Below, in pieces: positions 248 through 29,216 of a stretch of 35,670 bases of DNA. Position numbers and translations under genes: made by a program. The notes beneath the pieces were generated by a model. The model made no database searches and was not told the origin of the DNA. It worked only from the letters and a program-made list of their open reading frames with translations. The stretch lies in assembly GCA_947039385.1 (NCBI GenBank), contig CAMQYR010000004.1:1-35670 (forward strand), given 5' to 3'. Origin of the DNA: an uncultured Mycoplasma sp. (lineage in GTDB: Bacteria > Bacillota_I > Bacilli_A > Mycoplasmatales > Metamycoplasmataceae). The stretch's first letter is position 1. Each line of letters begins with the position of its first letter.

Positions 248-1033
248 CTAACTAAAATTAGATTTTTTGTTATTTCTTTCTTTTTGAAAATTTTCTAATT
301 TTCTAATAAATTCTGTATCTTCAAATGCTTTGGATGGTTGTGAATTATTTCAAAGAATAATCAAGTAATTAACAAGTTCTTTGTGATTTTTAATGAATTG
401 ATAATTGTAATCATCATACTGATTTAAAAAAAATGTTTCTTGTTCATCTGTTAGTCTTAAACTTTCTATAATGTAAGCTAATTCAAAATGTTTATCACCC
501 ATATGTGCATATTCTCAATCAATAATAAACAATTTACCATTTTTATCTTCTATTAAATTTTGAACTCAAATATCAGAATGAATTGGGTCAGATTTATTTT
601 GATTTTTCAAAATATAGTTAATTCTTTTGTAATAATCATGAACTATAGGTATTTTTATATCTTTTTCTCATAAAATTTTGCGATATTCCTTTATTCTTGC
701 CGCAATATTAAATGGAGGGAATGTTAGTTTAGAATTATGAACCTCTTTTACTAAGTCGGCAATTTTAATTAAATTTTCATTATTCACAACCGGGTTTATT
801 CCACTTATAAATTCTCATTTATTTTCTTTTATAGTTTGTGATATAAATTTTGGAACAAAATTAAAAACTTGCAGTATGTTGTAATCAATTTTATGGTTAA
901 ATTTATTATATACTTTTTCTTGGATAAAAACATTACCATCTACAAATGAGGTGTTTGTATGACCAATTTTAATTTTATTCTTCATGACATTAATTTTATC
1001 ATTAAACAAAAACATTTTATTTATAAAAAACAT
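248..1033 (-). CDS. Choline kinase / aminoglycoside phosphotransferase-like (APH fold) protein
   Basis: Code-4 reading through TGA; motifs PIHSDIWVQNLI (HxDxxxxN catalytic loop) and FIIDWEYAHMGDKHFELAYI. Start could also be the internal ATG at 985. Confidence 0.75.
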
Positions 1034-1099: not shown

Positions 1100-2134
1100 A
1101 TGCATAATTATAAAAAGAACTACCAAAACATTATTAATTTTTCCATAGTAAAAGTTAATCTAAAATGATGGAAACTTATTTTGCTTGGTATAGTGGGCAG
1201 CATATATATCGGAATGGGATATATCGGTTTTATCATGATTATTGCAGGAATGCAAAAACCAGAAATTTTTTCAAACGATTGACAAGAACAATTGGTAAAT
1301 GGAATAGGTCCTAATATAAATATCTCAGGACCTCCTTTAATAATAGCGGCCGCCATATTTCCAATTGGGTTTTTATTGCTAGTTTTTTTAGGAGGTTCTT
1401 TACTTACATCAGATTTTGAAGTATTCACCATTGCCGTTATAACAAAAAAAATAAAGATGTTTCCAGCAGTGTTAAAATTAATTTTAACACTGCTTGGAAA
1501 TATAATCGGTGCATTTATAATTGCTGCACTTGTAAGGGGCGGACACATTTTCAATGACAAACATTTATATGTTTTGCAACAAATTATTGCAGAAAAAGTT
1601 CATTGGGAATGATGACAAACATTTTTCTCAGGTATTTTGTGTAGTATTTTAGTTTCTTGATCTGTTTGAGTCACTATGTCTAGACATAAAAATGCTAAAA
1701 CATTTTTAATTTACTTTCCAATTTTATTATTTGCTTTAGTTGGTTTTCAACATGTTATAGCAAATTTCATATTATTTGCTTTTGGGTGGGTTCATGCCGA
1801 TAATATAGTTATGAAAAATATTGGTCAAGGAATATTTGCTTCTTCATTAACATTAGGTGATTGATCATTTAAAGCAATGTTTATAAATTTAATTCCTGCT
1901 TTGGTTGGCAATTGATTATCAGGAGCAATTTTAATTCCTTTTGTTTCTTTTTGATTAATTAATTGTTATAAAGAAAACAAAAATACGATTGAAGAAGATG
2001 ATATATCAAATAATAATGAAAATTTATTGAAAAATGAGGAGCCTGATTTCTATGAGTTTTATGATTCATTAGATGAAGATATCTATCCTGCTGACGAACT
2101 AATTAAGAATCAATTTGATGTTGAAGAAAGTTAG
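1100..2134 (+). CDS. Formate/nitrite transporter (FNT) family channel
   Basis: Multi-TM protein read with TGA=Trp: WWKLILLGIVGSIYIGMGYIGFI..., ...GNIIGAFIIAAL..., FALVGFQHVIANFILFAFGW, INLIPALVGNWLSGAILIPF (FNT-like signatures). Confidence 0.8.
1465..1494. repeat. Perfect 30-bp palindrome inside the FNT coding region
   Basis: agcagtgttaaaatt|aattttaacactgct; flanks tttcc / t ggaaa extend it with one unpaired base. Confidence 0.95.
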
Positions 2135-2736
2135 TTGTCAACAATATATTTTAATTTTTCTCATTTATTATTAAACTCATTAACTATTTTAATTTCTTTT
2201 ATTAATTCTTCTTTATTGATATTAAAGACTTTTATAATATCTTTAATAGAAAACAAACAATATAAATGTAAATGTGCTAAGTCGAAATATTTGCTATTAT
2301 AATTTACCCACTCAAAATCAATTAAATCAATATCATTATTCTCATTTATAATAATATTTTTTCTTCTTAAATCTCCATGAGATAAAATTACATCATTAAT
2401 TATATTAGAATCATTGAAATTGGTTATATTATTAATTTTAGTATTTCAATGTTTAACAAGAGCTTTTTTAATCTTTATCAAAATGTTAATATCATTTGTA
2501 TCTAGTGTTTTGCCTTGAATTCATTTTCTTACCAAAATTTGTTTATCAACATAAAAAACATCTCTTTTATTTTTTAGTAAAAGTATTTCATTGCCATGAT
2601 TAACAATATTGTTCTTTGATATTCTTATTTGAACAAGGAAATCACAAAAAACTCCTCTATAGGTTTTATTGTGATTTCCTTCATAAAATAATTCAAGTTC
2701 AGTTATATTAAGTTTTTTAATAATATCTTTTAACAT
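2131..2736 (-). CDS. Second choline kinase-like / APH-fold phosphotransferase
   Basis: VILSHGDLRRKNIIINENNDIDLIDFEWVNYNSKYFDLAHLHLYC: HGDxxxxN and DFE(W) motifs. Confidence 0.75.
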
Positions 2737-2747
2737 ATCCAAAATTA

Positions 2748-11776: not shown

Positions 11777-12925
11777 ATGAAAAAAATAAAAATAATTGGT
11801 GCCGGATTATCAGGAGTAGTGCTTGCAAGAAAACTTGCTGAAAATGATTATAATGTTGAAATAATTGAAAAAAGACCAAACATTGGTGGCAATATTTTCG
11901 ATCATAAAATAAAAGGAATTACAGTTCATAAGTATGGACCCCATATTTTTCATACCTCTAAAAAAGATGTTATAAAATTTATGAATCAGTTTTGAACATT
12001 AAATAAATTCAAAAATATTGTGGAAGGTTATGTTGGTGATAAACTGGTTCCTATACCATTTAACTTTAAATCAATTGATATTTGTTTTCCACAAAATAAT
12101 GATTTAATTAAAAAAACACTTTTAGAAACTTATGCCGGAAATGATAATATTGCAATTTTAGAATTATTTAAAAATAAAAATCCATTAATAAAAGAAGTTG
12201 CAAATTTTATTTACAAAAACATATTTGAAAATTACACAACCAAAATGTGAAATTTAAAACCCAATGAAATTGATTATTCAGTTACTGCAAGAATTCCTGT
12301 TATTCTTTCTTATAAAAATACATATTTTAATGATGATTATGAAGGGGTTCCTGAAGAAGGGTATACCAAAACAATTGAGAGAATGTTGGATCACAAAAAT
12401 ATTAAAGTTTCTATAAGTGAAAATGGAATTAAACATTTAGAGTTTAAAAAAAACATGATTTTATTTGATCAGAATAGTGATTGTTTAGTGGTGTATACAG
12501 GACCACTAGATACTTTGTTTAAAAATAAATTTGGAATACTGGATTATCGCTCTTTAAACATAAAGGTGAAGGAAATTAAAAGAGATCAATTTCAAAAAAC
12601 AGCAGTTGTAAATTATCCTGCACATCCAACTATGACAAGAATAACTGAATATAAAAATATGACATTTGAAAAAAATAAAGATATAACAATAATATCTAAA
12701 GAATTTCCTGGAGTTTTTTCCCCATTATCTAAAGATTTCAATGAACCTTATTACCCTTTAGCCACAGATAATGCTAGAAATAAATATCAAGAATATAAAG
12801 AACTTGCAGATAAGTATAACAATTTATATTTACTAGGTAGATTGGCCACTTATAAATATATAAATATGGATCAAGCTATAGAGGATTCATTGTTAATGGC
12901 AAAAAAAATAATGTTACTAAAATAG
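11777..12925 (+). CDS. glf: UDP-galactopyranose mutase
   Basis: MKKIKIIGAGLSGVVLARKLAENDYNVEIIEKRPNIGGNIFDHKIKGITVHKYGPHIFHTSKKDV...; EGYVGDKLVPIPFNFKSI; joined through TGA codons. Confidence 0.94.
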
Positions 12926-21001: not shown

Positions 21002-22093
21002 GTGAAATTTAAAAACTTATTATTTAAGCTAGTAATACCTGTTGTAATAATGATTCCGGCATTTGCTTTTTCTTCTTGCAGTTCAACATCTAAATCTGAA
21101 ATTACAATTGTTAATCCAAATCATACATTATATTACTCAAGAAAAGAAGATTCTAAAGAAACTTTTAATAATGTATTTAATTTACTTCAAAGAAAAAATC
21201 AATGTGAAAAACCGAATTCATTTTATAATAAGAATGTTGATGATATCAATAAGATAATAGAAAATGCAATAAGTAACAATAAAGAAATGTTAGAGAAGTT
21301 GAGAATTTATTTGTTTATTTCAATTTATGATTCTTTAAAAAATGTAACTAATATTATTAATAAACAACCTGTTCATATTAAACCAGAAGGTCAAAGATTG
21401 GTTGCTAAAGAAAAAATTGAAACTTTTATAAAAGCGTCTAATGATAAAAAAGATAATTTTAAAGATTTAGAAAATGAATTGTTAAAAATAGTCAATATAA
21501 AATTGAAACTTATTGTTAATGAGCAACCAAACCTTTGATCATGGGAATTTCAATTTCAATTAGATAAAGATTCTAAATTAGCTGAATTTGTTCAAGGAAA
21601 TGATAATCCTAATCCACGTGGAGTTTTTTATAGAAGAGACATAAATTCAGTTGAAAATAAAACACTTGAAAAAAATGCAGTTGTAGATGGTGTTTATAAT
21701 GAAGAAAAATATCAAGAATTATTTCTTCAAGCTCAATATCAAGCTTCTAAATGATATTGAGATGACAATACTAAAATAATGAAAAGTATAATTTTACAAT
21801 CGAATACCAACCCTTTTAAAACGCTAGGTACAAATGGTGGTTTTTCTAGTGAGGATGCCAAAAGAAATCTATTGACAATAGATTTTAATAATTATCCAAA
21901 CAATAATAAATATGAACCATTATTTCTTTTTCAATCTAGTGAAACTTTAGAAAAATTTATTACTAATGAATGACAAAAGTTTATGGAGTATAAAAAGTAT
22001 ATTATTGTTGATGACAGTAGTGATCAAGAAGTTAATAAAAATAATATTTGAATTAACTTGAATTCAAGTTATATCAAGTATGACAAAAAGTAA
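21002..22093 (+). CDS. Putative surface lipoprotein
   Basis: GTG start, SD aaggtgg; signal peptide with lipobox-like FAFSSC; joined through several TGA (Trp) codons. Confidence 0.82.
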
Positions 22094-22122: not shown

Positions 22123-23496
22123 TTAGTATTTTTTAATAAACTCAACAATTGTTTTCAACATTGGTGATTTTCCAATTTCTTTTATATCAGCTGTTCCAGC
22201 AACATCGAAATGAATGTAATCTTTTCCATCTGCAAAAGTCATTAATCAAGCAGCGGCAATATTACAATCACTATAATCAGTGTTAGAACATGAGGTAGTA
22301 TCTGCAAAAGTTTTTTTAGATAAAGATTCAATGTATTTAGAATCTAACGGCATTCTTCAAACTTTTTCATTTTGAATATTTGCAGCATCATTAATTAAAT
22401 TTCAATTTTTATCAGAAGTTGATCAAACACCAGTATAAAAATTACCAAGAGCAGAAATAATTGAACCAGTCAATGTTGATATATCAATTAATAAATTAGC
22501 TTTTAATACTCTAGAAGCATAAGTTAAACCATCGGCCAAAATTAAACGACCCTCCGCATCAGTGTTTGCTATTTCAACAGTTTTACCTGACATAGAGGTA
22601 ATGATAGATTCTGGAAGAACAGCATTTGAATCAATAAGATTTGTTGTTATAGGAAGAACAATTGAAACATTTTTTTTCACATTTAATTGAGCGATTGTGT
22701 CTAAAATATAAGCAGCAATAGATGCTCCACTCATATCATATTTCATTCCAAGCATTCCCCTACCTCTTTTAAGGTTATAACCACCAGAATCAAATATTAT
22801 TCCCTTACCAACAATGGCTATTTTTTCATTTGAATTGGAGGAATCATTATTATACTCACAAACAAGAATTTTTGCATTATCATTAGAACCAGAATTAACA
22901 GCAAGAATTAAATTCATACCTAAGTCTTCAATTTCCTTTTTATCCAAAATTTTAATTTTAATATTTTTGTTTTTTAATTTTAAAAACGTTTTATTTAATT
23001 CATCAACAAGAAAATCAATAGTGCATAAATTAGCAGGCATATCTTGTAGATATTTAACTTCATTCATTTGATTTGCGAGTAAAATAACTTCACTAAATTG
23101 AGAAGTATCATGCGTTTTTGATATGATTACATGTTTCCTTTTTTGAATAATGTTATTAGCATTTGTTTTTTTTGAAAATGATTTTCCATTTATTAAAATA
23201 TTTCTTTCAATAAAAAGTTTAATAAAATCTTCTTCACTAATTTTTGCGGTTACAAATGAAGATGCATCTATTTCATAATCCCTTCTTAGATTGATAATTA
23301 ATTTATCCAAAATTTCAGATAAATAATTTAATTCTAATTTTGACATATTACCAAGAAAAACAGTTAGTTCTTTTTTGTTAGAATCTTCAATAAAACTTCC
23401 TATTTTAGTTGAAGATTTTTTTTGATCTTGGTTTTCTGCACAAAATGAAGCTAGCAAAGTAAATCTTGTATTTGATTTTGAATGTATTATCTCCAT
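22123..23496 (-). CDS. pepA: M17 leucyl aminopeptidase, copy 1
   Basis: IVGKGIIFDSGGYNLKRGRGMLGMKYDMSGA; EIANTDAEGRLILADGLTYA. Confidence 0.93.
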
Positions 23497-23499
23497 AAG

Positions 23500-24873
23500 T
23501 TAATCCTCCGCATTAATAGCCATTTGTATTAATGTTTTTACCATAATCCCGGTTGGTTCATCACCATTTCCAGCTGTTCCCGCAACATCTAAATGAATAT
23601 ACTCTTTTCCTTCTGTAAATTCTTTTAGAAACATAGCTGCAGCAGAAGATCCACCTTTGCCTGTTGTGTCAGAATTTTTATAATCTGCAAAATTTGATTT
23701 TTTAATACTTTTCAAATAATCATTATGAAATGGCATTCTTCAAACTAATTCGTCTTGCATTTTTGAAGCTTTCAATAAATCTTCTCATCCTTTTTCAGTT
23801 GTAGATCATGCTCCAGTATATGTTGAACCTAATGCAACAACCATTGCACCTGTAAGTGTTGCTACATCAACAATTCTTGTTGCATTAAATTTCTTTATTG
23901 CATATGTAATTGCATCAGCAAGAACTAAACGACCCTCAGCATCAGTATTATTTATTTCAACAGTTTTACCACTCATTGATGTATAAATAGAATCAGGCAA
24001 TGAAGCTTTTGATGATATTCTGTTGTCTGTTAAAGGTAACACTATAGAAATATTTGTTTTTGGAGATAAAGTAATGATTGAATTCATTGCAGCAAAACAA
24101 ATTGCTGCTCCACTCATATCATATTTCATGCCTTGGATAGAATTAGATGGTTTTAAGTTGTATCCACCTGAATCAAAAGTAATACCTTTACCAATATAAA
24201 CTATTTTTTCTTTGGAAGAAGGATTTCCAATATATTCAGCAGTCACTAATCTTGCGTCATAATTAGAACCTGCATTTACAGATAACAAAAGCCCCATACT
24301 TTCTTTTTCAATTTCTTTTTTATCCAATACCTTTAATTGAATTTTTGAACCATGTAACTCTAAGGCTTTAGTCATTTGATCAGCCAATCAAATAGAATTA
24401 CAAATATTTGGTGGTGTAGCTTGTAACTTTCTTGCAACATTCACTGATTTTGCAAGAAATAAAGCATTTAAAGCATTTTTTTCTAAACTTTTATCTTCTG
24501 AAAAAATAGTTAAATTTACAAGTTCCTCTTTTTTCGTTGTTTTTGCTGTATATAATGTTGAACCTTTTATATATTCATATTTATCAAAAAATGTCGTTAA
24601 AACATTTTTTTCAGTAATTTTTTTTGTGGTAAATGATTTAGCAATTATTTCATAATTTCTTGTATTTAAATTGATTATTTTACTTGCCACTAATTTTAGA
24701 GAATAATTTCCAAATTCATCCTCCTTACCTAAAAAAACATAAGCAATTTTTTGATCTGGAAATTCAGTTATTGCAAACTTTTCTTTAAGTAAATTATTTT
24801 TATCAACTTTTGAATCTTCAAAAAACCCCCTTAATTTAAAATCGTTGCTTTTTGATGTGCTTATAAATTTCAT
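23500..24873 (-). CDS. pepA: M17 leucyl aminopeptidase, copy 2
   Basis: YIGKGITFDSGGYNLKPSNSIQGMKYDMSGA; EINNTDAEGRLVLADAITYA; SD aggaag before the ATG at 24873. Confidence 0.94.
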
Positions 24874-25054
24874 ATAACTTCCTTTCATATTAAATGGTTT
24901 ATTTTAACTAATTATAAATCATTTATTTTTTTAATTAGGTATTAAAATAAAAAAATGTATTTTTATATTAGTATTAATTGTAATTAGATTACTTATTTTA
25001 TTTTACTTTAGATATTTTTTAATAATTTTTGTTTTTCTTTATAAAATCATATTG

Positions 25055-25060: not shown

Positions 25061-25176
25061 TATCACATAATATTATCGAAAAATATTAAGTAATTTTTAA
25101 TTAAAATATTTAAATTAAATGTATAGTTGCTTGGTAAATTTCTAAAAATAAGTTAAGTTATTATAGGAGAAATTAA

Positions 25177-26769
25177 ATGAAAATAAAAAAATTTTATTAT
25201 CCGCTTTTTATAGCGTTTTTAGGATTTTTATCTTTCTCTATTTTAACTTTATCTTCCTTATCAATAACTTCAAATTCATTTAATTTAATAAAAAAAGATT
25301 CTAATAAAATATCAAATATTGGTTCACAAAAACAAAAATATAATGATCAAAACGCCCTGCAAATGGATGTTCAAGAAAAAGCAACAAGTGATTCAACTAT
25401 TATTTATTATATAAATTGAATCGGTATTTCTCCGCGTCTTATGTCTGCCAGTCATTTGATAAAAATATTAGAAATTAATCCAAATAAAGAAGTATATTTT
25501 GTAATAAGAAAAAATGTTAAAATGAATTTGCTTGATTCAGAAATAAATCAAAATAAATCAAAATACCCTAATTTTAATTTTATAATGATCGAAGACCCTT
25601 TAATTGATTCAATACAATCCATTAAAAATCAAGATTATTTTCCTTTGCAAATCAGCGATATTATTAAAAAATTAAATAGCGAAAATAAAAAAATAGATTT
25701 TTATTGTGATGATTATTTAATTTTGAACCCAATTAACAATGTTGCAAAAAATTTGGAAAATGTGAATTATTATAATAAAGAAACTTGGAACAAAATAATA
25801 GATAATCTCGTGAGCAATTTTTCTAAAATTAAAAATATGAATTCAGTAAATATATTTGCAGATGGAACAATATCAATGAATTTCTTTTCAAGTACAATAT
25901 ATAAATCATTTTTATTTTCAGGAAATGCAATAGATAAAAGCAAAAATGAATATTTAAGTGAAAGTTTATTTCTTGATAAACATCCACAAGTAAATACTGT
26001 TCAAGATTTGATTTTATTTCTTCTATCTATAGTGTCAACAAATGAAAAAGGAAGCAATATTTCAAAGACAAAATATTTTCTTCCTACTGTTGAAATGGTA
26101 AATGAAGCAAATTTGGCTAACTCTCAAATTTTAGCCACAAATGAAAAAGATTTTTTCAATCCTTACAATTCTTTAGAAGCAGATTTGCTTTCATTTTGTC
26201 AGGGAATTCAGCACGAATCATTAAATTTACTAAATAAAATTTTTTCAAATAATTTAATAAGTGAAAGTAATTTTGAATTCATGAACAATAACAACAATTA
26301 TATTTATTCTGGTGCGCTTTTGGAAGATGGTAATAAAATTACTGAAGAATCTTTAAAATTATTACAAATCAAAAAGGAAATAGAAGAACAAGGGATAAAA
26401 AAATATAATATTATTTTTAAAGGTCATCCAAGAAATCCCGGAACTGTTGAACAAATACAAAATTCTTTGAGAAAAGAAGTTAAAAAGTTAAGTGGTGATG
26501 ATGCAAAGTGATTGTATGTTGTTAACAACAAAATACCTTATGAATTATATTTAGTTAGTGGAATTTTTGATAATAATCCTAAAAAAAATAAGATAGTAAA
26601 ATTGTATACAACGTTCTCGACAATTAATTTGTTTATATATGCTAAATATCCTATGTTAGAAATAATTGAGAAAATTTTAGTTAATTTAGAAACTCGAAAA
26701 GAAATATTCCATTATTTCTCTAATCAATCTAAAATTTTTCCTAAAGACAAATTTAGTGAAGTGAATTAA
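25177..26769 (+). CDS. Putative membrane-anchored glycosyltransferase, sialyltransferase-like (GT80/GT52-type motifs)
   Basis: N-terminal signal anchor; NIFADGT (DG motif, 25855-25869); YIYSGALLEDGN...YNIIFKGHPRNPGTVEQIQNSL (HP motif, 26416-26433); IPYELYLVSGIFDN; joined through TGA codons at ~25420 and ~26510. Confidence 0.6.
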
Positions 26770-26782
26770 GATAAAGAAAGGT

Positions 26783-27328
26783 ATGTTTAATATGAATTTA
26801 ATTTTAATGAAAAGTAAAAATAATGCATTATTAATTAATGTGATATCTTTATCATTTTGTTTAATATCAACTTTGATAATTTTCATTTTTTCATTTTTTC
26901 ATTTTTTAAAAATAATTGTTATTATTGGGTTATTCATTTTATTAATTTCTTATTTTTCATTAATTATCAATGTTTTGTTTCTATTTATAAATAGAAATAA
27001 ATTTTTATTTATAAATAGAAACAAATTTTTAAGGATGACTATTTTCTCAATTTTTCCAATTCCTTTTTCATACTTTATTATCGCAATTACAGTTATCTTA
27101 ATTATGCATTTTCCAATTCCAAACTTACATATGTCAACATTTTATGTTTTTTATCCTCTTTTTTACTTAATACCAATATTGTTTATAGTTTTAAGTTTAC
27201 TAATTTATTATAATTTTTATTTGAAAGAAAAAAAATTTGATAACTCTTTTTCAACTACATTTGAAAAACAAACAGTATTTGCTCATAGTGATTGTTCTAT
27301 TTGCTTAAAAAATTCTCTTATGCAATAA
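26783..27328 (+). CDS. Hypothetical multi-pass membrane protein
   Basis: SD agaaagg; four hydrophobic segments; no family recognised. Confidence 0.6.
   Translation: MFNMNLILMKSKNNALLINVISLSFCLISTLIIFIFSFFHFLKIIVIIGLFILLISYFSLIINVLFLFINRNKFLFINRNKFLRMTIFSIFPIPFSYFIIAITVILIMHFPIPNLHMSTFYVFYPLFYLIPILFIVLSLLIYYNFYLKEKKFDNSFSTTFEKQTVFAHSDCSICLKNSLMQ
26984..27031 (+). repeat. 24-bp tandem duplication (FINRNKFL x2), 23/24 identical
   Basis: tttataaatagaaataaattttta followed by tttataaatagaaacaaattttta. Confidence 0.95.
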
Positions 27329-29216
27329 CAAAATTAATTATTTTATTTTTAATAATGATAGTTTTAATTATCTTTTTATTTGAAATAAATTTAGAAACAT
27401 TATATTCTTGCTTAGCTTTTCCAATGATTTCGGATTCATTCATAAATTCATCAATAGTAATATTACCTCTTAATTTACCATTTATTTGAATGCTAATGTT
27501 TAAGTTTTGATTTATAATTTTTAGTTGATCATATTTAGGTCATTTTTGATATGCTATTGAATTTTCATTTAATTGCTCCAAAAGTTCTTCTGCCATATGT
27601 GGCGCAAAAGTTGAAAAAATTATTAAAAAACTTACTAAGTATTTTTTGCTTGAAAGTTTTTTTAATTTATATATAAAATTTATATAAACCATCATATTAG
27701 AAACAGCAATATTAAATTTTATATCTTCAATATTTTTGGTAGTTTCTTTTATCAAAATGTTGTAATTAGATTCTAATTCATTATTTATTTCAGTGTTGTC
27801 AATTTTCAAATCACCATTTATATATTTCTTAATTATTCTTCATACTCTATCTAGTCATTTTTTTGTTCCGTTAACAGAACCGCTGTTTCAAGGTTTTGTG
27901 TCTGTTAAAGGACCCATAAACATTTCATAAACCCTTAATGTGTCAGCTCCATGGGATTCAATAATTGTTGTTGGGTTAACAACATTACCTTTCGATTTAG
28001 ACATTTTTTGATTATCTTTCCCCAAAATCATTCCTTGATTTACTAATTTTAAAAAAGGTTCCCGGGTTGGGACAATTTTTAAATCATATAAAACCTTATG
28101 TCAAAATCTTGCATACAACAAATGGAGAACAGCATGTTCTTGCCCCCCTACATATAAATCAACAGGTAATCATTTTTGAAATCTTTCATATGCTTCCTTG
28201 GAATTTAAATCCAAGTAAGACCCATCATCATTTTTCATTATATATCCTAAATAATATCAAGAACTTCCTGCTCATTGCGGCATTGTATTAGAGTCGCGTC
28301 GATATGTTTTGCCATCTTGTTTAAAAATCAATCAATTAATATTATTAGCTAAAGGACCTTCTCCATTTCCTGAAGGTTTAATATTTTTCATTTTTGGAAG
28401 TTCAACCAAATTTTCAATTAGCAGAATATTGTTATCTTCATCAAAAGCAATAGGGAACGGTTCTCCTCAATACCTTTGACGAGCAAAAACTCAATCTTTT
28501 AAATGATAAGTTATTTCCCCATTACTATCAATTTTTTTGCCAATTCAATTTTTTTGTAATGATTTTAGTGAATTTGGTCAATTCAAATCTTTTAAGTCTT
28601 CTAATAATTTATTGGCGTAATTAGTTATTTTTAAAACTCATTGTTTCATAGCTTTTTTTACTACTGGAAATGATCCCCTTTCACTTACATTATTGCCGTG
28701 TTGATCTTGCAATACTTCTTCATTAGCAAGAACTGTTCCCAAGCCCTCACATCAGTTAACATCAATTTCTTTTATTTCAGCTAAACCATTTTTGTACATT
28801 TGAGAAAATATTCACTGTGTTCAGCGATAGTATTGTGGGTCAGTTGTATTTATTTCTTTATCATAATCATATGAAAATCCAAGAGACTTTAATTGAATTC
28901 TAAATTTATTTATATTTTCATTAGTGAATGTTGAAGGATTATTTCCGGTTTGAATGGCATATTGTTCAGCGGGAAGTCCAAAAGCATCTCACCCTATTGG
29001 ATGCAAAACATCAAATCCATTTAATCTTTTATATCTAGCAATAATATCGGTAGCAGTATATCCTTCAGGATGACCTACATGTAGACCTGTTCCTGACGGA
29101 TAAGGGAACATATCTAAAACATAATATTTTTTTTCTTTGTTATAAGTAGTTTTAAATGTTTTGTTTTTTTCCCATTTATCTTGTCATTTTTTTTCGATTT
29201 TTTGATGTTCATACAT
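27318..29216 (-). CDS. leuS: Leucyl-tRNA synthetase lacking the CP1 editing domain
   Basis: [96 protein letters not shown]; only 632 aa. Confidence 0.96.

What the first reader, a model, noticed from the sequence alone, without database searches (positions are those of the whole stretch)
25177..26769. Membrane-anchored sialyltransferase-like enzyme in a mycoplasma
After reading TGA as Trp, this 530-residue ORF has an N-terminal hydrophobic anchor plus the two motifs typical of bacterial sialyltransferases: an acidic-Gly motif (NIFADGT) and an HP motif (YNIIFKGHPRNPGT). The context resembles GT80 enzymes such as Pasteurella PmST1 as I recall them: YIYSGALLEDGN vs FIFTGTTTWEGN, IIFKGHPR vs IYFKGHPR, IPYELYLVSGIF vs ISFEVLMMTGLL. 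M. mobile, the probable host, glides by binding sialylated host oligosaccharides, so a surface or secreted sialyl-modifying enzyme would be unexpected and relevant. No CMP-sialate synthesis genes are in this window. The donor could be another sugar.
Basis: partly seen in the sequence, partly recalled or inferred. Interest (0 to 1): 0.78.

Follow-up and report, generated by a model that had tools for sequence, protein, structure and literature searches.

The report
Surface sialyltransferase-like enzyme in mycoplasmas
A fish-gut-type mycoplasma carries an outward-facing, membrane-anchored enzyme built like the GT80 sialic-acid transferases of Pasteurella and Photobacterium; it belongs to a family that standard annotation mostly misses, found in several lineages of these wall-less bacteria although its own genus shows no genes for making activated sialic acid.

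Summary
The ORF is real: 530 codons under code 4, ribosome-binding site, purifying selection among relatives. Pfam, NCBIfam and PDB sequence searches do not recognise it, but two AlphaFold models of the family retrieve only GT80 sialyltransferases as the best 21 and 23 PDB matches (best E 4e-10 and 4e-12; next fold 5e-5 and 8e-6). Profile-profile comparison with GT80 gives P=9e-8 (3e-8 trimmed; score 67.5 against 25.4 for the best of 100 shuffles). The five catalytic residues of PmST1 (D141, H311, E338, S355, S356) correspond to D229, H417, E456, S481, T482, all among the 12 invariant columns of 18 diverse homologues. Homologues occur in 7 of 12 species of its genus, in a second mycoplasma family and in Spiroplasma-like lineages; they carry a membrane anchor, lipoprotein signal or secretion signal, so the catalytic domain should face outward. 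Some relatives pass Pfam's polysialyltransferase cut-off. In this genus the gene always sits beside small membrane-protein genes. No NeuA, NeuB or sialidase was found in the genus. Most likely it is an extracellular CMP-dependent glycosyltransferase using scavenged or in-situ-made CMP-sialic acid; the donor sugar is unproven. The source is not M. mobile itself.

The parts
25165..25169 (+). Shine-Dalgarno-like AGGAG, 7 bases before the start codon
   Evidence: read directly from sequence
25177..26769 (+). GT80-like glycosyltransferase gene, 530 aa, code 4 (stop included)
25204..25260 (+). N-terminal hydrophobic anchor (residues 10-28), positive charges before it: N-in, C-out
   Evidence: hydropathy and charge; topology is inferred
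25708..25713 (+). D178-D179 at the end of strand beta-4 of the N-terminal Rossmann domain; D179 invariant in 18 homologues; in GT80 this place holds N109/H112 (placement by secondary-structure order only)
25861..25866 (+). D229-G230, counterpart of catalytic base D141 of PmST1
26419..26430 (+). K415-G416-H417-P418, HP motif, counterpart of K309-H311-P312 of PmST1
26542..26544 (+). E456, counterpart of E338 of PmST1
26617..26622 (+). S481-T482, counterpart of S355-S356 of PmST1
   Evidence: assignment by motif order, spacing and secondary structure
26792..27328 (+). small multi-pass membrane protein gene (178 aa from the ATG with a good Shine-Dalgarno; 190 aa from the mechanical GTG start 26756), directly downstream; related small membrane proteins flank the enzyme gene in all 7 genomes of the genus that have it
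   Evidence: no Pfam family

Best explanation
The gene encodes an extracellular, membrane-anchored, inverting GT-B glycosyltransferase, a distant relative of the GT80 sialyltransferases. Shown by computation: homology to GT80, retention of every catalytic residue of PmST1, purifying selection. Well supported but inferred: the N-terminus is in the membrane and the catalytic domain lies outside the cell. Inferred: the C-terminal domain binds CMP as in PmST1, with H417 and S481/T482 on the phosphate, E456 on the nucleoside side and D229 activating the acceptor hydroxyl; a CMP-linked sugar, most likely a sialic acid, is moved onto a terminal sugar (galactose-type) on the mycoplasma's own glycolipids or lipoproteins or on nearby host mucin. 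Because no CMP-sialate synthesis genes were found, the donor would be host CMP-sialic acid (as gonococci scavenge it), or be made in place by the reverse reaction of GT80 enzymes (sialoglycan + CMP gives CMP-sialic acid). The flanking small membrane protein would be a partner for anchoring or acceptor presentation. Sub-confidences: GT80-like homologue 0.95; outward-facing 0.9; active CMP-dependent transferase 0.75; sugar is a sialic acid 0.5.
For: Fold: AlphaFold models of the window protein (pTM 0.76) and of a 28%-identical homologue (pTM 0.79) have only GT80 enzymes as their best 21 and 23 PDB matches. Sequence: hhalign against a GT80 profile P=4.3e-6 with 7 sequences, 9.2e-8 with 18, 3e-8 trimmed; shuffles reach score 25.4 against 67.5 and the reversed profile 14.6. 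Residues: D229, H417, E456, S481, T482 are all among the 12 invariant columns of 18 homologues; the PmST1 catalytic set is stated in PMC4202792. Spacing DG-to-HP is 188 residues, near PmST1 (170), whereas GT38/GT52 are about 50 shorter than GT80 (PMC2169525). Relatives pass the Pfam polysialyltransferase cut-off. Exposure: TM anchors, mycoplasma- and Spiroplasma-type lipoprotein signals or cleavable-looking signals precede the domain in the relatives; more distant PF11477-positive proteins in the class also look like lipoproteins, on coiled-coil stalks. Selection: dN 0.055, dS 0.58. No NeuA or NeuB over cut-off in the genus. Reverse sialylation by GT80 enzymes: PMC10795189. Host donor scavenging: PMC11078009.
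Against: No biochemical evidence. The window protein itself scores below every Pfam/NCBIfam threshold and finds no GT80 chain by sequence-to-profile search. The N-terminal, sugar-binding half is not recognisably conserved with GT80 by sequence, and the first acidic residue of D/E-D/E-G is lost. The wider family reaches Spiroplasma-like genomes, whose usual hosts (arthropods, plants) have little or no sialic acid (general knowledge), so sialic acid may not be the ancestral substrate. No sialidase, and the NanE genes of relatives sit with an RpiR-like regulator and a PTS, without an evident NanA, so they do not show sialic acid use. MAG incompleteness (G000 93.9% complete) limits absence claims.
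Confidence: 0.55

Rival explanations
1. Same fold and CMP/nucleotide site, but a different substrate: the enzyme transfers something other than a sialic acid (another CMP-sugar, or another nucleotide-linked group), with a rebuilt acceptor/donor half.
For: N-terminal half diverged, D178/D179 (D179 invariant) at the place of GT80's N109/H112, A-D-G instead of D-D-G; no NeuA/NeuB in the genus; relatives in Spiroplasma-like lineages, whose hosts are poor in sialic acid (general knowledge).
Against: GT80 and polyST relatives of known function use CMP-sialic acid; no CMP-sugar pathway of any kind is known to me in mycoplasmas; the residues that contact CMP in PmST1 are kept.
Confidence: 0.27
2. Mainly a CMP-dependent sialidase or trans-sialidase: the enzyme strips host sialoglycans by the reverse reaction to feed or unmask receptors, rather than decorating surfaces.
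For: GT80 enzymes have sialidase and trans-sialidase activity through reverse sialylation (PMC10795189); the genus has no sialidase match; an extracellular location needs no cellular donor; the Arctic char relative makes pyrimidine ribonucleotides (PMC11092275).
Against: In known GT80 enzymes this is a side activity; no clear sialic acid catabolism genes found.
Confidence: 0.1
3. A catalytically dead GT-B domain used as a surface lectin or adhesin, for example for binding sialylated receptors.
For: Surface exposure; M. mobile binds sialylated oligosaccharides during gliding (abstracts).
Against: All five catalytic residues are invariant across 18 sequences down to 17% identity; the chance that five given columns all fall among 12 invariant ones of 473 is about 4e-9, ignoring column bias (my arithmetic; one search gives 6e-6 for the 7-sequence set).
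Confidence: 0.05
4. Not related to sialyltransferases: a generic GT-B enzyme whose DG and HP motifs are coincidence.
For: No direct Pfam or PDB sequence hit for the window protein.
Against: Exclusive GT80 top hits in two models, profile-profile P to 3e-8 with shuffle controls, Pfam PF07388 above cut-off in homologues.
Confidence: 0.03

Closest known systems
CAZy GT80 / Pfam PF11477 (PM0188): PmST1 of Pasteurella multocida, PdST, Photobacterium Psp2,6ST, Pd2,6ST, Pph2,3ST
   Same: GT-B fold match; order and spacing of the motifs xDG, Y/F-xxG, FKGHP, I(P/S)xE, SS/ST; all five catalytic residues; an exported N-terminus also occurs in GT80 (lipoprotein-like signal in the Vibrio harveyi plasmid homologue)
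   Different: below the PF11477 cut-off; about 10-16% identity in structural alignments; N-terminal sugar-binding half unrecognisable by sequence; A-D-G instead of D-D-G; S-T instead of S-S; no CMP-sialate synthesis genes in the genome
Pfam PF07388 (A-2_8-polyST, polysialyltransferase family)
   Same: Spiroplasma-like homologues of the family pass its cut-off; shares the DG and HP motifs
   Different: window protein does not score; DG-HP spacing is GT80-like; the structure search returns GT80, no polysialyltransferase among the top 50
Lst of Neisseria gonorrhoeae (GT52), sialylation with scavenged host CMP-Neu5Ac
   Same: would work, if the reading is right, without own CMP-sialate synthesis, from host donor
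   Different: another GT family; [quoted passage not shown] here the domain is predicted outside
PF11477-positive lipoprotein-like proteins of other members of the class (G581, G399)
   Same: lipoprotein-like signal, GT80-type C-terminal motifs DGS, YKGHPR, IPVETL, GTSFQSS
   Different: long coiled-coil stalk, another bacterial family; only a weak profile link to the mycoplasma family (P 2e-4)

Membership tests
GT80 | GT-B fold nearest to GT80 structures | tested here: met
   the best 21 and 23 matches are all GT80
GT80 | catalytic Asp (D141 of PmST1) followed by Gly | tested here: met
   D229-G230 invariant in A6; in another alignment two homologues read T-D-L
GT80 | strict D/E-D/E-G motif | tested here: not met
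   A-D-G in the window, [A/S/G/T]-D-G in homologues
GT80 | HP motif in FKGHP context (H311) | tested here: met
   FKGHPR; K415, H417, P418 invariant
GT80 | Glu338 and Ser355/Ser356 counterparts | tested here: met
   E456, S481, T482 invariant; E456 aligned by hhalign. S481/T482 rests on motif order, spacing and secondary structure, as hhalign leaves that block only roughly aligned
GT80 | significant profile similarity to GT80 | tested here: met
   hhalign P 9e-8, and 3e-8 trimmed, with shuffle controls
GT80 | Pfam PF11477 above gathering score | tested here: not met
   PmST1 and the Vibrio homologue do pass
GT80 | transfer of sialic acid from CMP-sialic acid | not testable with these tools
   needs purified protein
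PF07388 polysialyltransferase | Pfam gathering score | tested here: not met
   window protein no hit; five of seven Spiroplasma-like homologues scanned are above the cut-off, two below
CMP-sialic acid producer (own donor) | NeuA and NeuB genes in the genome | tested here: not met
   no match over cut-off in the 12 genomes of the genus; positive controls found

The most novel reading that the evidence does not exclude
Mollicutes carry a widespread family of surface-exposed CMP-dependent sialyltransferases that sialylate their own or host glycans outside the cell, using host CMP-sialic acid or making it on the spot from host sialoglycans and CMP. That would be sialylation by bacteria that can neither make nor activate the sugar, in organisms with relatives that move by binding the same sugar.
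Probability: 0.4. Interest if true: 0.82.

Novelty: new variant of a known kind. Interest (0 to 1): 0.64.

Why it matters
Standard pipelines miss this family: the published dbCAN annotation of the Arctic char relative, which carries the nearest homologue found, lists only CE9, GH170, GT2, GT4 and GT58 (PMC11092275). If active, it gives wall-less bacteria a way to modify surfaces outside the cell without a donor pathway, which bears on immune mimicry, mucosal residence of fish-gut mycoplasmas and sialic-acid-dependent gliding. It also adds a branch linking GT80 and polysialyltransferase families, and a testable case of CMP-assisted trans-sialylation as a physiological activity.

Tried and rejected
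Direct Pfam, NCBIfam and PDB sequence searches of the protein and of its 7- and 15-member profiles: no useful hit. Viral contigs and phages: no relatives. BFVD structure search: only generic glycosyltransferases. G031 weak hit falls in an Obg-like GTPase gene region: rejected as chance. NanE in 6 of 12 genomes considered as support for sialic acid catabolism, rejected because it sits with an RpiR-like regulator and a PTS without an evident NanA. Source = M. mobile rejected as stated. Pfam hits of the small membrane proteins (COX1, Ost4 and others, one member each) rejected as hydrophobic chance matches. Global hhalign mode gave a meaningless end alignment. Literature searches for mycoplasma sialyltransferases and for Spiroplasma polysialyltransferases found nothing relevant.

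Full report
Observation. The frame 25177-26769 on the + strand encodes 530 residues under code 4 with two TGA codons. It has an AGGAG seven bases before the ATG and a hydrophobic stretch from residue 10 with net charge +3 before it and no other membrane-like segment. The neighbouring genes are two leucyl-aminopeptidase-like genes upstream on the - strand and, downstream, a small membrane-protein gene on the + strand and a leucyl-tRNA synthetase on the - strand. dN/dS between two close relatives of the family is about 0.1 (dN 0.055, dS 0.58), so the family is maintained.

Relatives. In the same genus 7 of 12 genomes carry the gene, the other six at 26-45% identity to the window protein; none was found in the rest of the family (135 genomes; the one weak hit was rejected). 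The named records are uncultured Mycoplasma MAGs. The nearest homologue (44-45%) is in MAG AC_MYC01 from Arctic char gut, whose published CAZyme list has no GT80 (PMC11092275). Order-wide, a second family (f3: G221, G294 twice, G299 twice, G307) and a third (f6) carry it, and the enlarged profile extends this to further f6 genomes. The f6 proteins have Spiroplasma-type lipoprotein or secretion signals; that f6 is Spiroplasma is my inference from these signals, genome size and code.

Fold. AlphaFold on the 7-sequence alignment gave pLDDT 70, pTM 0.76. Foldseek against the PDB placed 21 GT80 entries first (E 4.1e-10 to 2.7e-7), then a gap to 5.4e-5. A second prediction, of the homologue in L011 (28% identical to the window protein), gave pTM 0.79 and 23 GT80 entries first (3.6e-12 to 2.5e-8), then 8.3e-6. 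No GT52 or polysialyltransferase entry is in either top 50. The two models share the same seven sequences as input, so they are not fully independent.

Profiles. A GT80 profile was built from four PDB chains read out of search alignments (PmST1 2c84, 2zwi, 2z4t, 4r9v) and a Vibrio harveyi plasmid homologue. hhalign: P 4.3e-6 with 7 sequences, 1.6e-7 with 15, 9.2e-8 with 18, 3e-8 with the 18 trimmed to the catalytic part, score 67.5; 100 column shuffles of the GT80 profile gave at most 25.4 and its reversal 14.6. Sequence-to-profile methods alone are silent for this protein, but Spiroplasma-like members pass the Pfam polysialyltransferase (PF07388) cut-off.

Active site. PmST1 needs D141, H311, E338, S355 and S356 (PMC4202792); chain numbering confirms these as the second D of DDGS, the H of FKGHP, the E of SFEVL and the SS of ASSL. 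The counterparts D229, H417, E456, S481, T482 are among only 12 invariant columns of the 18-sequence alignment. K415, P418 and G379, in the same motifs, are invariant too. By contrast the first acidic residue of D/E-D/E-G is A, S, G or T, and D179 is invariant where GT80 has N109/H112 by secondary-structure order. So the CMP side is kept and the sugar/acceptor side differs. In an earlier alignment two homologues read T-D-L at the DG site, so G230 is less certain than D229. The S481/T482 assignment rests on motif order, spacing and secondary structure more than on hhalign.

Exposure. Three kinds of signal precede the same domain in different species: a transmembrane anchor, mycoplasma- or Spiroplasma-type lipoprotein signals, and a cleavable-looking signal. 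All point outward. More distant PF11477-positive proteins elsewhere in the class look like lipoproteins with a coiled-coil stalk.

Neighbour. In all seven genomes of the genus the enzyme gene lies directly beside one or two genes for small membrane proteins (about 110-190 aa, 3-5 hydrophobic segments), although the surrounding genes fall into several unrelated neighbourhoods; a profile finds such proteins only there (the profile was built from them). In the window it is 26792-27328. The second-family and Spiroplasma-like homologues mostly lack it. Its function is unknown; the linkage suggests a partner.

Donor. No NeuB and no NeuA over cut-off in the genus, with positive controls; no sialidase. 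NanE occurs in 6 of 12 genomes, not in this one, with RpiR-like and PTS genes. So the donor must come from outside, be made by reverse reaction, or not be sialic acid. GT80 enzymes catalyse reverse sialylation (PMC10795189) and gonococci scavenge host CMP-Neu5Ac (PMC11078009); these are precedents, not evidence for this protein. The presence of the family in Spiroplasma-like genomes argues for caution about sialic acid.

Verdict. GT80-like homologue: very likely. Outward-facing enzyme: likely. Sialic acid as the sugar: open, about even. Formal GT80 membership is not claimed because the Pfam cut-off and the strict motif were tested and not met. Novelty: a new variant of a known kind, apparently unannotated in the mycoplasmas.

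Noticed in passing
27318-29216 (-): Leucyl-tRNA synthetase of 632 aa; the Pfam scan shows the catalytic and anticodon-binding domains but no separate editing domain, a trait I recall for M. mobile LeuRS.
   Followed up: partly
11777-12925 (+): UDP-galactopyranose mutase (TIGR00031, 372 bits), so a galactofuranose-containing surface glycan is possible: a conceivable acceptor pathway.
   Followed up: no
22123-24888 (-): Two tandem leucyl-aminopeptidase-like genes next to the finding.
   Followed up: no
21002-22093 (+): Putative lipoprotein of 363 aa with no Pfam or NCBIfam match and no homologue among the related loci compared.
   Followed up: no
248-1033 (-) and 2131-2742 (-): Two choline-kinase/APH-like small kinases near each other, with a membrane protein gene between them.
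   Followed up: no
L055 4047-6368 (-), L056 3832-5682 (-): Lipoprotein-like protein with a long repetitive coiled-coil stalk ending in a PF11477 (GT80) domain, read in the standard code, in another family of the class: a second surface GT80-like architecture.
   Followed up: partly
L051 4308-6008 (-) and 14979-16661 (+); L049 and L050: Two paralogous lipoprotein copies of the GT80-like gene per genome in two species of the second family, one copy next to fusA/rpsG-like genes in both.
   Followed up: partly
L070 2666-4075 (+): In one Spiroplasma-like genome (G207) the homologue is split into two frames, possibly a decaying gene.
   Followed up: no
L013 7977-10046 (+): Homologue with an extra C-terminal domain of about 130 residues of unknown nature.
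   Followed up: no
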